From Mycolicibacterium tokaiense (lineage in GTDB: Bacteria; Actinomycetota; Actinomycetes; Mycobacteriales; Mycobacteriaceae): a DNA stretch of 64,000 bases. The DNA is taken from the NCBI RefSeq assembly GCF_010725885.1, contig NZ_AP022600.1, positions 4,960,001 through 5,024,000 on the forward strand, in the 5' to 3' direction. The translations under genes and the position numbers were made by a program. The stretch's first letter is position 1; each line of letters opens with the position of its first letter. Positions 14,124 to 64,000 of this stretch are shown in pieces. The notes beneath the pieces are model-generated. The model searched no databases and was not told the DNA's origin. It worked only from the letters and a program-made list of their open reading frames with translations.

Positions 14124-15845
14124 CTAGAAGAGGAAATAGCGTTGCGCCATCGGCAGTTCCGCTGCAGGCTGCTCTTCCCAGACCTGTCCGTCGATGCGCA
14201 CCGTGAACGAGTCGGGGTCCACCTCGATGGACGGCAGGGCGTCGTTGAGCGGCATGTCCGCCTTTCCGACCTTGCGGACGTTGCCCACCGGCACCAGCCT
14301 GCGCCTGATGTCCAGCCGGTCGGCCAGCCCGTCCTCGATGGCGGCCGGCGCCACGAAGTGCACCGACGTGGCGGCCGCAGACACCGGGGCGGCACCGAAC
14401 ATGGGCCGCGGCAGCACCGGCTGCGGCGTCGGGATGGAGGCGTTGGCATCCCCCATGGCCGCCCAGGCGATCATGCCGCCCTTGATGACGGCGTGCGGCC
14501 GGACCCCGAAAAACGCCGGCTCCCAGAGCACCAGGTCGGCGAGCTTGCCCACTTCGACCGATCCGATCTCGGAGTCCATCCCGTGGGCCACCGCGGGGCA
14601 GATGGTGTACTTCGCGACGTAGCGCTGCACGCGGTTGTTGTCGGCGTTGGTGTCGCCGTCGAGGAAGCCGCGGCGCTTCTTCATCACGTGGGCGGTCTGC
14701 CAGGTACGCATCACCACCTCGCCGATACGGCCCATGGCCTGGGCGTCGGAGCCGATCATCGAGATCGCGCCGATGTCGTGCAGCAGGTCCTCGGCGGCGA
14801 TCGTCGAAGGACGAATGCGGCTTTCGGCAAAAGCCAGGTCCTCGGGCACACTGGGATTGAGGTGATGGCAGACCATCAGCATGTCCAGGTGCTCGTCGAG
14901 GGTGTTGACGGTGTGCGGCCGGGTGGGGTTGGTGGAGCTGGGCAGCACATTGGGGTGCGACGCCACGGTGATGATGTCCGGCGCGTGTCCGCCGCCGGCA
15001 CCCTCGGTGTGATACGCGTGGATCGAGCGCCCCTTGATCGCCGCGAGGGTGTCCTCGACGAACGCCATCTCGTTGAGGGTGTCGGTGTGGATGTTGGCCT
15101 GCACACCGGCCGCGTCGGCGACCGTCAGGCAGGCGTCGATGGCGGCCGGGGTGGTGCCCCAGTCCTCGTGCAGCTTGAATCCCGCTGCGCCGCCGCGCAA
15201 CTGCTCCCACATGGCCTCGTGGCTGACGGTGTTGCCCTTGCCGAGCAGCGCGATGTTCAGCGGCCAGTGGTCGAGCGACTCCAGCATCCGGGCGAGATGC
15301 CAGGCGCCGGGGGTGACGGTGGTGGCCTTGCTGCCTTCCGCCGGCCCGGTGCCACCGGCGACGATCGTGGTGATGCCGCCGCCGAGCGCCTCTTCCATGA
15401 TCTGCGGGCAGATCAGGTGGACGTGGCAGTCGATGGCGCCGGCGGTGACGATGCGGCCGTTTCCGGCGATGATCTCCGTCGACGGGCCGACCACCAGGTC
15501 GGGGTGCACCCCGGACATGATGTCGGGGTTGCCGGCCTTGCCGATGGCCACGATGCGGCCGTCGCGGATCCCGATGTCGGCCTTGATGATTCCCCAGTGG
15601 TCGACGATGACCGCACCGGTGATGACGGTGTCGGGGGCGCCGTCGGCGCGGGTGGCCCGCGACTGCCCCATCGATTCACGCAGCACCTTGCCGCCACCGA
15701 ACACCGCTTCGTCGCCGGCCAGGTCCGGGCCTCCGCTGCGGTCCTCGGTGATCTCGATCAGCAGGTCGGTGTCGGCGAGCCGGATGCGGTCGCCGGTGGT
15801 GGGACCGAACAGCGCGGCGTGACGGGACCGGGACAACGCGGCCAT
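14124..15845 (-). CDS. ureC: Urease alpha subunit
   Basis: A 573-residue catalytic subunit of the nickel urease that hydrolyses urea to ammonia and carbamate. All active-site residues are present: nickel ligands His141 and His143 (CHVHL), the carbamylated Lys224 (GFKLHEDWG), His253 (IHTDTL), His279 (HTEGAGGGH) and Asp367 (GSDAQAMG), plus the flap CysHis pair at 326-327 (MVCHHLNP). The ATG shares one base with the ureB stop (TGATG). Confidence 0.98.
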
Positions 15846-60647: not shown

Positions 60648-61673
60648 CTACGCCTGCAACGCCTGTTGCCCGAAGGAGTTCACCGCCAATGACCCCTCGG
60701 GCAGCACGACCTCGCCGGCCTCGACGCGTGCCCGCAGATAGGCGAAGGTCTGCGCCGTCTGCGCGAACAGGTGCTCGCCTGCGCGCAGCGGTGTGCGCAC
60801 CGGAGCTCCTGCGGTGACGAACTGCGGCAACGGTTTGACCTCGGTGTCGTAGTCGACGTTGAAGAACAGCGGGAACGAGTACCGTTCCTCGCGCACCTTG
60901 CGCACCCGGTGGCTGGTGGCGACGAACGCTCCGTTGGTCCACAGCTCGAGCATGTCGCCGATGTTGACGACGTAGGTGCCCTCGATGGGTGGGACGTCGA
61001 TCCACTCGCCGTTGCCGTTGAGCACCTCCAGCCCGGGGGCGGTGGGCTTGAGCAGCGTGAAGCACTCGTAGTCACTGTGTGCACCGATGCCCAGGGCGTC
61101 TTCGGCGTCGGGGTTGAACGGATAGTGCACCAACCGCAGCTGACTCGGGGTCTTGGTGGCGTGGCGGGTGAAGGTGTCGGGGTCCTCCCCCAACGCGACG
61201 GCGAACGCCCACAGCAGCTTGTGCCCCACCTCGAGTACAGAGGTGTAGTAGGCGGTCACCGCCTCGGCGAAGCCGGGCAGCTCCGGCCACGTGTTCGGCC
61301 CCAGCATGGGATTGCCGGCCAGGTAGTCGGGGTCATCGGCGGGAAGGTCCAGCGCGGTGTCGAAAGCCTCTTTGAGATCGGGCTTCTCGCCGTTGAGTCC
61401 CTCTTCGCCGACGGGAACGTAACCGCGATGACACTGCGACAACCCGATGTAGGAGCGCATCTTCTCATCGAGCGGCAGCGCGAAGAACTCCTTGGTGGCG
61501 GCCAACAGGGCGTCGAAGCACGCCGGCTCGATGTCCGCACCGCTGATGTAGAAGAACCCGACATCGCGTGCAGCGCGGCCCAATTCGGCTGCCACCGCTT
61601 CCCGGTCGCTGAGCTGCTCTGAATACAGTCCACTGATGTCGATGACGGGCACCGAGGTGAATGCTGCAGTCAT
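60648..61673 (-). CDS. 2-Oxoglutarate/Fe(II) oxygenase, isopenicillin-N-synthase family
   Basis: A 341-residue jelly-roll oxygenase with the DIOX_N region (VPVIDISGLYSEQ, ARDVGFFYISG) and iron triad His199, Asp201 (GAHSDYECFTLL) and His255 (ATSHRVRKV). Arg264 in RYSFPLFFN is the expected 2-oxoglutarate contact. YVPVGEEGLNGEKPDLKEAF resembles ethylene-forming enzyme and thymine-hydroxylase-like relatives. Its ATG overlaps the preceding gene's stop (ATGA), the last link in a coupled operon with allantoinase and a racemase. That context suggests oxidation of a purine or pyrimidine breakdown product, but this is inference. Confidence 0.85.
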   Translation of the reverse strand: MTAAFTSVPVIDISGLYSEQLSDREAVAAELGRAARDVGFFYISGADIEPACFDALLAATKEFFALPLDEKMRSYIGLSQCHRGYVPVGEEGLNGEKPDLKEAFDTALDLPADDPDYLAGNPMLGPNTWPELPGFAEAVTAYYTSVLEVGHKLLWAFAVALGEDPDTFTRHATKTPSQLRLVHYPFNPDAEDALGIGAHSDYECFTLLKPTAPGLEVLNGNGEWIDVPPIEGTYVVNIGDMLELWTNGAFVATSHRVRKVREERYSFPLFFNVDYDTEVKPLPQFVTAGAPVRTPLRAGEHLFAQTAQTFAYLRARVEAGEVVLPEGSLAVNSFGQQALQA

Positions 61674-62269
61674 GGTGTCACTTCTCCTTCGCTGTCGAGC
61701 ACAGTCCATGTCTGGGAGGCGCGCACCGTGAGCGTGCGGTCGTGCACCCGCGGCGCCAGATCGGTGCCGCAGTGGCCGGAACCCGAGGAGTCGGTGATCT
61801 CCCACCGCTGTCCGGTCACCGCCCCCAGGGAGATCTCGGTCCCGGCGCCGGTGTGTGCGGCCCATCCGAACAGGTCGCCGACCCGCAGCAGCAACGCACG
61901 GGCACCGCCGGGACCTGCCAGCGTCAACGCCCAGCGGGGCCCGGCGACGGGATGCAGCACCCAGTGCTCGACGTAGTCGGCGTGCACCCCGGTCTCCACC
62001 AGAACCCCGTCGTCCCAGTGCATCCGGCCCTCGTCCGGGAATTCACCGACAGGCTGCAGGCCGGTGAAGCGGTCCCAGGTGAACACCTCCCCGCTCTGAC
62101 GTAGCCACCCGGCGAAGCCGTCCTGCGCCGCCGGGTTCGCGGGCACCGGTGTGCGCAGGTCGACGAACGCGGTGAGGCCCTGTAACCAGCGCACATCGCT
62201 ACTGGTGTCCCGGGATCCGTCGGCGTCGATGAGCAGCGTGCGCCGCCACAGCCCGGTGCACTCCGACAT
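61670..62269 (-). CDS. Unrecognised conserved-looking protein, possibly Hri1-like
   Basis: A 199-residue protein without signal or membrane segments. It starts MSECTGLWRRTLLIDADGSR and continues VRWLQGLTAFVDLRTPVP, GFAGWLRQSGEVFTWDRFTG and VETGVHADYVEHWVLHPVAG. This pattern of strands resembles the lipocalin-like halves of the Hri1 family, which I mention with low confidence. The ATG at 62269 is chosen; GTG at 62275 is possible. It lies 11 bases after the racemase gene and overlaps the oxygenase gene, so it belongs to the same unit, and may bind a ligand or act as a partner. Confidence 0.6.
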   Translation of the reverse strand: MSECTGLWRRTLLIDADGSRDTSSDVRWLQGLTAFVDLRTPVPANPAAQDGFAGWLRQSGEVFTWDRFTGLQPVGEFPDEGRMHWDDGVLVETGVHADYVEHWVLHPVAGPRWALTLAGPGGARALLLRVGDLFGWAAHTGAGTEISLGAVTGQRWEITDSSGSGHCGTDLAPRVHDRTLTVRASQTWTVLDSEGEVTP

Positions 62270-62280
62270 CCGCACCCCGG

Positions 62281-63027
62281 TCACAGCCCCAGCCCCAGCG
62301 CCGTCGACAGCGGCCACTGGCTGCGCGGGTTCGGCGGTGTTCCGCCGCCCACCTTCCTGGCCTGCAATCCCAGTCCCACCAGCGACTGCGCCAGCACCAC
62401 TGCGGCAGCCACCCCGTCGATCGCGGGGACACCCAGTCGCGCCGTGATCGCTTCGGTCACCCCGGCCATGCCCGCGCACCCCAGGCAGATGACGTCGGCG
62501 CCGTCCTCGTCCATCGCCCGTTGCGCCTCGGCCACGATGGCGTCCACCGCGCCGGACGGATCGGCGTCCACCGCGGCGGTGCCGAGGCCGCACGCGCGCA
62601 CCGAGGCGCAGTGGGCGGACAGGCCCGCCAGCAGCAGACGGTCCTCGATGGCCGGGATGGACGCGGCCAGGGTGGTGATCACCGAGAACCTGCGGCCCAC
62701 CAGATGCGCCAGATGCACGGCAGCTTCGGCGATGTCGAGCACCGGCACGGTCAGCAGTTCCTGCAGGGCGTCTTTGCCGTGTTCACCGAACCCGGCCAGG
62801 ATCACCGCATCGAAGTCGAAGCTGCCGGCGTCCAGCAGCCGCGCGGTCAGATCCAGGACCCCGACCGCGCAGAGGTAGCTCTCGGCGGCCGAGTCCACCG
62901 CCTCGGCACCGAACAGCGGTGACCTCGTGACGATCTGAGTGCCGGGGGCCGCCGCCGCACGGGCCGCCCCATCGATCTCGGCCGTCATGCTGGCCGAGGT
63001 GTTGACATTGCACACCAAGATCCTCAT
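62281..63027 (-). CDS. Asp/Glu/hydantoin racemase family protein
   Basis: A 248-residue racemase-fold protein: MRILVCNVNTSASMTAEIDG is the normal family start, and ADVICLGCAGMAGVTEAITA carries the second catalytic Cys (Cys184). The first catalytic Cys of hydantoin or allantoin racemases should fall in LAGFGEHG, where Gly79 stands. It may therefore be a decarboxylase-like or isomerase-like member rather than a two-base racemase. The ATG overlaps the allantoinase stop (ATGA). Confidence 0.8.
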   Translation of the reverse strand: MRILVCNVNTSASMTAEIDGAARAAAAPGTQIVTRSPLFGAEAVDSAAESYLCAVGVLDLTARLLDAGSFDFDAVILAGFGEHGKDALQELLTVPVLDIAEAAVHLAHLVGRRFSVITTLAASIPAIEDRLLLAGLSAHCASVRACGLGTAAVDADPSGAVDAIVAEAQRAMDEDGADVICLGCAGMAGVTEAITARLGVPAIDGVAAAVVLAQSLVGLGLQARKVGGGTPPNPRSQWPLSTALGLGL

Positions 63028-64000
63028 GCCGCGACCACCGCATCCACTTGCCGTCCGGCCACCCACGTCTGCAGCACGGCGCCGTCGAGATGCCTGCCGT
63101 GATAGGGCGTCACCGGATGCCGGTGGTGCAGGCGGGTCGCGTCCACCGGCTCCGATGCCGCGGGGTCGAAGACGGTCAGGTCGGCGCGGGTGCCCACCGC
63201 GATGCGGCCGCGGTCGGTCAGTCCGGCCAGCGCCGCGGGTTGTGCGGCCATCCACCGGCACACCTGCGGCAGTGTCACCCCGCGCCGGCGCGCCTGGGTC
63301 CACACCGCCCGCAACCCCAGCTGCAGGGAGCTGATGCCGCCGAAGGCAGCTCTGAAATCACCGGCCGGCTTGAGGTGCGGGGCGCACGGCGAATGATCCG
63401 ACACCACCATGTCCAGCACCCCGCCACCCAGCGCGGCCCAGAGTCGTTCGCGGTTGTCGGCCTGGCGGATGGGCGGACAGACCGCGTATTCAGTTGCTTC
63501 GCAAGGGATCTGCGCGGCGTCGAAGCTGAGGTAGTGCGGGCAGGTTTCCGCGGTGACCGGCAGTCCGTCGGCCTTGGCCGCAGCCAGCAGCGGCAGCACC
63601 TCGGCGCTCGAGACATGCACGATGTGGGTACGCGCACCGGTGCGGCGGACCTGCTCGAGCACCAGTGACACCGCACCCACCTCCGCGGCATCCGGGCGGC
63701 TGTGCAGGAAGTCGACATAGGCAGGGCCGCCGATCACCGCTCCGGCGGGCAGCAGCTCGGCGTGCACCAGCAGGACCGAGTCCAGCGTCGCCACCGCCTC
63801 CATGGCGCGGCCCAGCTGATCGGCGTCCAGCGGCGGGAAAGCCGCGTTGCCGGAGTCGGCCAGGAAGCACTTGAAGCCCAAGCAGCCCGCTGCACGCAGC
63901 TCGGCCAACACCTGCGGGGTGTCCACGTTCTCCGGTACCACCCCGCCCCAGAAACCCACGCTCACCCGGCAATGGCCCTCTGCGGCAGCCCTCTTGGCAG
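63024..64000 (-). CDS. allB: Allantoinase/hydantoinase-type amidohydrolase (N-terminus beyond window)
   Basis: The C-terminal ~325 residues of a cyclic amidohydrolase that matches allantoinase most closely: AAAEGHCRVSVGFWGGVVPE, GFKCFL with the carboxylated Lys, LLVHAE, THIVHVSSAEVLPLL and VVSDHSPCAPHLKPAGDF with the final metal Asp. It ends with the family's amidohydrolase C-domain (ADLTVFDPAASEPVDATRLH, VTPYHGR). Coding continues past 64000 with no stop, so the internal GTG at 63965 is not the start. Allantoinase opens allantoin to allantoate; a related hydantoin substrate is possible. Confidence 0.85.
   Translation of the reverse strand, partial: AKRAAAEGHCRVSVGFWGGVVPENVDTPQVLAELRAAGCLGFKCFLADSGNAAFPPLDADQLGRAMEAVATLDSVLLVHAELLPAGAVIGGPAYVDFLHSRPDAAEVGAVSLVLEQVRRTGARTHIVHVSSAEVLPLLAAAKADGLPVTAETCPHYLSFDAAQIPCEATEYAVCPPIRQADNRERLWAALGGGVLDMVVSDHSPCAPHLKPAGDFRAAFGGISSLQLGLRAVWTQARRRGVTLPQVCRWMAAQPAALAGLTDRGRIAVGTRADLTVFDPAASEPVDATRLHHRHPVTPYHGRHLDGAVLQTWVAGRQVDAVVAA

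What the first reader, a model, noticed from the sequence alone, without database searches (positions are those of the whole stretch)
60648..64000. Coupled operon: allantoinase, atypical racemase, unknown protein, 2OG/Fe(II) oxygenase
Four leftward genes are joined by ATGA overlaps or an 11-base gap, so their products should act together. Allantoinase and a racemase are familiar in ureide use, but an isopenicillin-N-synthase-type oxygenase and a small unrecognised protein are not standard parts. One possibility is a route where the oxygenase hydroxylates a purine- or pyrimidine-derived ring (thymine hydroxylases belong to the same family) before ring opening. This is the best candidate in the window for an undescribed pathway.
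Basis: partly seen in the sequence, partly recalled or inferred. Interest (0 to 1): 0.7.

Follow-up and report, generated by a model that had tools for sequence, protein, structure and literature searches.

The report
Mycobacterial methylguanidine demethylase operon
In a mycobacterium-type bacterium, an oxygenase and an unrecognised protein encoded next to allantoin-breakdown genes match a recently described enzyme pair, and are predicted to strip the methyl group from methylguanidine so that the cell would be able to use its nitrogen.

Summary
In detail: four coupled leftward genes encode allantoinase (running on to 64325), allantoin racemase, an unrecognised protein and a 2OG/Fe(II) oxygenase. 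They end a ten-gene operon (ABC importer, cysteine hydrolase, binding protein, lactonase-like hydrolase upstream), divergent from a TetR gene. The unknown protein and oxygenase are adjacent in 75 of 81 loci, whereas allantoinase is seen in 48 of 77 actinobacterial loci. The oxygenase is 59% identical to, and in one clade with, an oxygenase in an operon laid out like the published methylguanidine (mgdH-mgdL) operon of Vreelandella. The unknown protein aligns with the MgdL-position protein there, whose D and R stand at 49 and 51, the published catalytic residues; ours are D42 and R44. One palindrome (CTGTC-N4-GACAG) precedes this operon and the host's own cgd-type guanidine genes. So the pair most likely demethylates methylguanidine to guanidine and formaldehyde; ring hydroxylation has no support. 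The known pair was described in halophiles under riboswitches; a form linked to ureide genes, beside a TetR gene, in mycobacteria is a new variant. Substrate, TetR binding and the roles of the lactonase-like enzyme, cysteine hydrolase and allantoin genes are untested.

The parts
60648..61673 (-). 2OG/Fe(II) oxygenase, MgdH-type (predicted methylguanidine hydroxylase)
   Evidence: Pfam DIOX_N + 2OG-FeII_Oxy; H199-x-D201, H255, R264-x-S266; 59% identity over 337 aa to the oxygenase between gca and the MgdL homologue of L126; clade of 12 rows, support 99/98
61670..62269 (-). unrecognised protein, MgdL-type (predicted N-(hydroxymethyl)guanidine lyase)
62281..63027 (-). allantoin racemase (5lfd type)
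   Evidence: Pfam PF01177; PDB 5lfd allantoin racemase E 3.7e-71, shared AG[FY]GEHG and CLGC[AG]GM
63024..64000 (-). allantoinase AllB, C-terminal part (gene runs to 64325; upstream operon genes G000:C1 5024322-5031233, palindromes 5031293-5031306 and 5031389-5031402, and TetR 5031430-5032107 lie outside the window)
   Evidence: TIGR03178 allantoinase 471.4 bits, cut-off 357.85 (gene read from L003); flank fetched; palindromes

Best explanation
The oxygenase and the unrecognised protein are likely a mycobacterial counterpart of the MgdH-MgdL pair and would demethylate methylguanidine in two predicted steps: 2OG-dependent hydroxylation of the methyl group to N-(hydroxymethyl)guanidine, then cleavage to guanidine and formaldehyde by the unrecognised protein. 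Shown here by sequence: close similarity of the oxygenase to those of guanidine-carboxylase operons, the conserved Asp/Arg dyad of the partner, operon coupling, and one palindrome in front of both this operon and the host's cgd-type guanidine genes. Inferred: the substrate, the catalysis, and that the TetR proteins bind the palindrome. Guanidine would then go to the CgdA/CgdB-type proteins, the gca-type carboxyltransferase and the allophanate hydrolase encoded elsewhere in the genome. The ABC importer would bring in methylguanidine or a precursor; allantoinase and racemase are an optional nitrogen module for allantoin in the same operon; the cysteine hydrolase and the lactonase-like enzyme may release the guanidino compound from a larger import (speculative).
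For: L126 (unnamed gammaproteobacterial genome): Gd-I riboswitch, NitT ABC, two DUF1989 genes, Gd-II riboswitch, gca-type carboxylase, our oxygenase's relative (59%), an MgdL homologue, then a Dpp-type importer, a GntR gene and allophanate hydrolase, i.e. the published V. boliviensis order with mgdH/mgdL between gca and atzF plus extra genes; its MgdL-position protein has D49 and R51. Oxygenase clade 99/98. A profile of our family finds that protein (E 1.1e-23). Full cgdA-cgdB-gca-atzF sets stand beside the same operon in L132/L036 and L138/L030. Palindrome: two copies in 27 of 27 TetR-ABC intergenic rows (26 distinct loci) and before the host's cgdA; in 20 of 20 fetched short-gca clusters; before cgdA in L132 and L138. 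Of 10 exact matches in the 6.33-Mb genome, 3 lie in these two promoters.
Against: No activity was measured. The published MgdH/MgdL sequences could not be fetched; L126 is a stand-in. The unknown protein is only 32% identical to the L126 protein, over 123 columns. No guanidine riboswitch at gathering score in the 19 kb around the operon. 6 of 49 genomes with the adjacent pair have no gca-type carboxyltransferase at E<=1e-100. In the host the gca-type gene lacks biotin-carboxylase and biotinyl domains, and the allophanate hydrolase gene stands alone with no palindrome (<=1 mismatch) in its 18-kb stretch. Some MgdL homologues stand without an adjacent 2OG oxygenase (L034, L080, L083, L084). MBL, cysteine hydrolase and allantoin genes are not explained by methylguanidine alone.
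Confidence: 0.7

Rival explanations
1. Same two-step chemistry (N-alkyl hydroxylation, then lyase cleavage of the hemiaminal) but on another methylated or alkylated guanidino or ureido compound, such as creatine, creatinine, an N-methyl ureide or a guanylurea-like precursor, with cysteine hydrolase and MBL as further steps.
For: MBL is seen in 75 of 77 and the cysteine hydrolase in 65 of 77 actinobacterial loci. Relatives of both stand with an MgdL homologue downstream of a guanidine-I riboswitch in L124, with a creatininase-family gene (PF02633); L121 has MBL and the MgdL homologue, no cysteine hydrolase on its 8-kb contig. In Acidocella L084 the MgdL homologue overlaps a Rieske oxygenase gene instead. 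Guanylurea hydrolases are of the isochorismatase-like family (PMC9800807, passages).
Against: The oxygenase is close (59-61%) to oxygenases of two operons with cgdAB, a Gd-II riboswitch and gca; the published MgdL was specific for N-(hydroxymethyl)guanidine.
Confidence: 0.22
2. One reading: the oxygenase hydroxylates a purine- or pyrimidine-derived ring before ring opening by allantoinase.
For: Shared operon with allantoinase and racemase and, in relatives, allantoicase (49 of 77); thymine dioxygenase 5c3p is a distant relative (95.6 bits).
Against: The adjacent pair stands without allantoinase in 27 of 77 loci; the oxygenase sits in the clade of guanidine-operon oxygenases; the partner protein is related to a hemiaminal lyase, which ring hydroxylation would not need.
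Confidence: 0.05
3. The oxygenase is an arginine- or homoarginine-type hydroxylase (ethylene-forming-enzyme-like) that frees guanidine from an amino acid.
For: Best PDB match is an entry named ethylene/succinate-forming enzyme (9ovh, 234.9 bits).
Against: The L126 oxygenase has the same best match (199 bits), so it does not discriminate; other entries of that name score lower (9eir 95.8, 5v2t 66.2 bits over part of the chain).
Confidence: 0.03

Closest known systems
Methylguanidine demethylase MgdH-MgdL of Vreelandella boliviensis (PMC12508155)
   Same: 2OG oxygenase plus small partner protein in one operon; D-x-R dyad; oxygenase 59-61% identical to those of two operons of that kind (L126, L127); guanidine genes adjacent or behind the same palindrome.
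   Different: Actinobacterial; palindrome beside a TetR gene and no riboswitch found; extra MBL, cysteine hydrolase and, in 48 of 77 loci, allantoinase; unknown protein shorter than the L126 one (200-204 against 225 aa); in the window's genome the cgd-type genes lie about 730 kb away.
Guanidine carboxylase pathway (Gca, CgdAB, AtzF)
   Same: UAAP1, UAAP2, urea-type carboxylase and allophanate hydrolase genes beside the operon in several mycobacteria; UAAP1, UAAP2, a carboxyltransferase-only gene and an allophanate hydrolase gene in the window's genome (that UAAP1/2 are CgdA/B is recalled).
   Different: In 31 of 50 genomes examined the matching open frame is short (671-1073 aa); the host's has carboxyltransferase domains only. 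Guanidine- versus urea-type active site was not tested.
Bacterial allantoin degradation (AllB, allantoin racemase, allantoicase)
   Same: Allantoinase over its curated cut-off, racemase with 5lfd motifs, allantoicase present in 47 of 48 loci with allantoinase.
   Different: Allantoicase is missing from this copy of the operon; two allantoicase genes lie elsewhere in the genome.
Yeast HRI1/YLR301w fold (3rby)
   Different: 13% identity; a shared fold shows no shared function.

Membership tests
MgdH (methylguanidine hydroxylase) | 2OG/Fe(II) dioxygenase domains with H-x-D...H and R-x-S | tested here: met
MgdH (methylguanidine hydroxylase) | Same clade as the oxygenase of guanidine-carboxylase operons of the published layout | tested here: met
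   (L126, L127 as stand-ins; A0A265DXP8 itself not available)
MgdH (methylguanidine hydroxylase) | Hydroxylates methylguanidine | not testable with these tools
   needs assay
MgdL (N-(hydroxymethyl)guanidine lyase) | Catalytic Asp and Arg two residues apart (D49, R51) | tested here: met
   D42/R44 invariant in 26 of 26 chosen homologues, aligned to D49/R51
MgdL (N-(hydroxymethyl)guanidine lyase) | Beta-barrel fold (as modelled in the paper) | tested here: met
   model of the 99%-identical P0001: strands only in the element list, lipocalin-like matches to residues 1-114; position of D42/R44 inside the barrel not checked
MgdL (N-(hydroxymethyl)guanidine lyase) | Significant sequence similarity to the MgdL-position protein of L126 | tested here: met
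   (A0A265DXW6 itself not available)
MgdL (N-(hydroxymethyl)guanidine lyase) | Accelerates cleavage of N-(hydroxymethyl)guanidine | not testable with these tools
   needs assay
Riboswitch-controlled guanidine operon | Guanidine riboswitch upstream | tested here: not met
   no Rfam match at gathering score in L003; palindromes beside a TetR gene instead
Allantoinase AllB | Score above the curated cut-off of TIGR03178 | tested here: met
   471.4 against 357.85 bits
Allantoin racemase | Active-site motifs of the solved enzyme 5lfd | tested here: met
   AGFGE-x-G and CLGCAGM in 43 of 43 racemase loci, window included
Thymine hydroxylase | Thymine dioxygenase as closest solved relative | tested here: not met
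   95.6 bits against 234.9 for 9ovh
HRI1/YLR301w family | Sequence family membership | tested here: inconclusive
   fold match only; no Pfam match

The most novel reading that the evidence does not exclude
Environmental mycobacteria run a one-operon salvage line for animal nitrogen waste: one importer brings in a methylguanidine-bearing compound (creatinine-like or guanylurea-like), the lactonase-like enzyme and the cysteine hydrolase release methylguanidine from it, the MgdH/MgdL pair frees guanidine, and allantoinase, racemase and allantoicase handle allantoin beside it, all switched on together with the guanidine genes by one TetR-type operator.
Probability: 0.25. Interest if true: 0.72.

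Novelty: new variant of a known kind. Interest (0 to 1): 0.55.

Why it matters
It gives a testable function to a protein with no Pfam or NCBIfam match and to its oxygenase partner at 74 of 77 actinobacterial loci, extends methylguanidine demethylation from the halophiles named in the 2025 paper to mycobacteria and Nocardia, and suggests protein instead of riboswitch control. It points to methylguanidine-type compounds as a wider bacterial nitrogen source, whose natural origin the 2025 paper leaves open.

Tried and rejected
Ring hydroxylation of a nucleobase or hydantoin: rejected as above. An early thought that loss of the first cysteine makes the racemase a decarboxylase was dropped after the 5lfd alignment. 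'Allantoin genes and adjacent gca exclude each other': suggested, refuted (L052 and L055 have allantoinase and a full-length gca within about 3 kb of the locus). A whole-operon allantoin reading: rejected because 23 of 77 loci have the complete importer, MBL and adjacent pair but no allantoinase. [quoted passage not shown] Guanidine- versus urea-specific Asp/Asn of the carboxylase: not tested. Literature: searches (listings seen; of the 269 papers only 12 listed) showed no paper on mgdH/mgdL in mycobacteria in the held CC-licensed library; 'mycobacteri' occurs 0 times in the main text of PMC12508155; its supplements, which hold an alignment of MgdL homologues, could not be opened. Other papers seen: PMC12186494, PMC9800807, PMC12661438, passages only. 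In the Foldseek/VIA lists only the 3rby and lipocalin-like rows were used; absence there excludes nothing.
Full report
WHAT IS THERE. The four leftward genes are real and coupled: allantoinase 63024-64325, allantoin racemase 62281-63027, unknown protein 61670-62269, 2OG oxygenase 60648-61673, with two ATGA overlaps and one 11-base gap (none if the unknown protein starts at the GTG at 62284). The window lies in a 6.33-Mb single-contig genome. The flank shows six more genes upstream in the same direction: fused Dpp-type ATPase, two permeases, an isochorismatase-like cysteine hydrolase, a family-5 solute-binding protein and an AHL-lactonase-like MBL protein; a TetR gene is divergent (the second permease by eye and position). 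The closest named homologues of the unknown protein are from Mycobacterium, Mycolicibacterium and Nocardia, so the host is taken for a mycobacterium-type actinobacterium; its species is not known.

CONSERVATION. A scan of genome contigs with an alignment of the unknown protein found 84 encoding places, of which 80 were kept. Over these plus the window (81 loci; 77 actinobacterial, the others being L080, L082, L083, L084) the unknown protein and oxygenase are adjacent (<200 nt) in 75 of 81; the exceptions are L005 (only a fragment of the oxygenase matched), L034, L080, L083, L084 and L081 (445 nt; the unknown-protein match is split in two). In the 77: adjacent pair 74, MBL 75, binding protein 73, cysteine hydrolase 65, allantoinase 48, racemase 43, allantoicase 49 (47 of the 48 with allantoinase); allantoinase, racemase and adjacent pair together 42. 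Of the 29 without allantoinase, 23 have the complete importer, MBL and adjacent pair. Some contigs are short, so some absences are contig ends. The window's copy lacks the allantoicase that follows the racemase elsewhere; the genome has two allantoicase genes at other places. In five of the six Nocardia loci (L008, L010, L012, L014, L021) importer, MBL, unknown protein and oxygenase are found without the other enzymes; the sixth, L034, has the unknown protein alone. In evenly drawn samples the unknown protein occurs in 9 of 394 genomes of the host's class and 7 of 369 of the class of L080, so it is patchy.

IDENTITY OF THE PAIR. The literature search led to PMC12508155 (Introduction, Results, Discussion read): in V. 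boliviensis MgdH hydroxylates methylguanidine and MgdL, with catalytic D49 and R51, cleaves N-(hydroxymethyl)guanidine; the genes lie between gca and atzF in an operon with guanidine-I and -II riboswitches. In an unnamed gammaproteobacterial genome (L126) that layout is present: Gd-I (83.1 bits), NitT ABC, UAAP1 and UAAP2 (DUF1989), Gd-II (37.9 bits), urea-type carboxylase, an oxygenase 59% identical to ours over 337 aa, an MgdL homologue, then a Dpp-type importer of the same make-up as the window's (26-43% identity), a GntR gene and an allophanate hydrolase. The MgdL homologue has its D-x-R at 49 and 51. Our protein (P0001, 99% identical to the window's) aligns with it: blastp 32% over 123 columns, 7e-10; profile hhalign probability 98.1; D42 and R44 fall on D49 and R51. 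A profile search also finds it at E 1.1e-23 (the reported open stretch contains two stops, while the 225-aa gene itself is open). D42 and R44 are invariant in the 26 homologues aligned, chosen from 120 listed of 359. Across the 81 loci a motif expression finds the dyad in 69, and by eye in 11 of the other 12; in L081 the matched piece does not cover it. A tree of 24 oxygenases puts the window's in a 12-row clade (99/98) with L126, L127, Hyphomicrobium L082, L128 and the other actinobacterial operon copies; the host's four paralogues fall outside (seven forks open, two long branches).

LINK TO GUANIDINE IN MYCOBACTERIA. In 9 of the 77 loci allophanate hydrolase and the end of a carboxylase gene are visible beyond the TetR gene. 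L132 (same genome as L036) shows UAAP1-UAAP2-carboxylase-allophanate hydrolase; L138 with L030 shows the same set. A search of 50 of these genomes (30 with, 20 without allantoinase) for the carboxyltransferase part finds it in 43: full-length frames in 12 (10 without, 2 with allantoinase), short frames (671-1073 aa) in 31, none at E<=1e-100 in 7, one of which (L034) has no oxygenase in its locus. In the 20 short clusters fetched, no gene of the window's operon other than TetR-type genes was matched within the 8-10.5 kb read. The host has the short form: UAAP1, UAAP2 and a 670-aa protein with only CT_A_B and CT_C_D domains beside a TetR gene 55% identical to the operon's, and a separate allophanate hydrolase 62% identical to that of L132. 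That UAAP1/UAAP2 are CgdA/CgdB is recalled.

SHARED PALINDROME. The TetR-ABC intergenic region holds two copies of CTGTC-N4-GACAG 94-106 bases apart in all 27 rows examined (26 distinct loci; L138 repeats L030), with at most two mismatches to the consensus used. The host's cgdA promoter holds one exact and one one-mismatch copy, 71 bases apart. G000 has 10 exact matches in all (1 for the reversed control), 3 of them in these two promoters; the other 7 were not followed. In 20 of 20 short-carboxylase clusters fetched (of 31) a copy with at most one mismatch lies upstream of cgdA or of the amino-acid-permease gene before it (in L184 the gene between was not identified, and the permease starts are not settled); one further match in L188 lies elsewhere. 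Copies also precede cgdA in L132 and L138 and the DUF1989-carboxylase set of L129. Background: the 64-kb window has one one-mismatch match, L129 three others, L132 and L138 one each; the host's allophanate hydrolase stretch has none. That TetR binds it is inference.

MECHANISM. Most likely: import by the ABC system, hydroxylation of methylguanidine by the oxygenase, cleavage by the unknown protein, then guanidine use by the CgdAB-type proteins, the gca-type enzyme and allophanate hydrolase. Allantoinase, racemase and (in relatives) allantoicase are an optional ureide module. The cysteine hydrolase and MBL are unassigned; relatives of one or both recur with MgdL homologues in L121 (MBL, after a guanidine-I riboswitch), L124 (both, after a guanidine-I riboswitch, with a creatininase-family gene) and L084 (both, with a Rieske oxygenase overlapping the MgdL homologue), so they may work on a guanidino precursor. 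Guanylurea hydrolases belong to the isochorismatase-like family (PMC9800807, passages): a lead only.

NOVELTY. The reaction pair is published; its form here (actinobacterial, beside a TetR gene with a palindrome shared with guanidine genes, joined to ureide genes, MBL and cysteine hydrolase) was not seen in the searches listed under Tried and rejected. Verdict: new variant of a known kind.

Noticed in passing
L152:8392-11776 (G000:C1:5760391-5763775): A 'short' gca-type gene: carboxyltransferase domains only, no biotin carboxylase or biotinyl domain, after UAAP1/UAAP2 genes; short frames in 31 of 50 related genomes, followed by allophanate hydrolase in 7 of 20 clusters read. How it works without biotin domains is unexplained.
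   Followed up: partly
L121:4354-6945, L124:9796-17493: Behind guanidine-I riboswitches, an MgdL homologue stands with MBL and a fatty-acid-desaturase-family protein (PF00487 in L121) and, in L124, an isochorismatase-like and a creatininase-family protein, with no 2OG oxygenase matched: perhaps another oxygenase feeds the same kind of lyase.
   Followed up: partly
L084:8769-10702: In Acidocella a Rieske ring-hydroxylase gene (PF00848/PF00355) overlaps an MgdL homologue by 4 bases, suggesting the lyase partners different oxygenase families.
   Followed up: partly
L178:2713-4251, and L180, L181, L182, L187, L193: An amino-acid-permease-family gene (PF13520 in L178) stands between the palindrome and cgdA: candidate guanidine importer.
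   Followed up: partly
L028, L030, L037, L038, L053 downstream of the oxygenase: A second copy of the binding-protein and MBL genes follows the oxygenase in five mycobacterial loci.
   Followed up: no
protein P0270: A 391-aa MgdL-family protein from Steroidobacteraceae carries a cupin domain (PF05899), a possible fusion that hints at the pathway.
   Followed up: partly
15468-15839: Urease alpha-subunit match in the same window, a possible sink for urea from allantoin breakdown.
   Followed up: no
model m03489a87b68a against 3rby: Yeast HRI1/YLR301w shares the two-barrel fold; whether it keeps the Asp/Arg dyad was not checked.
   Followed up: no
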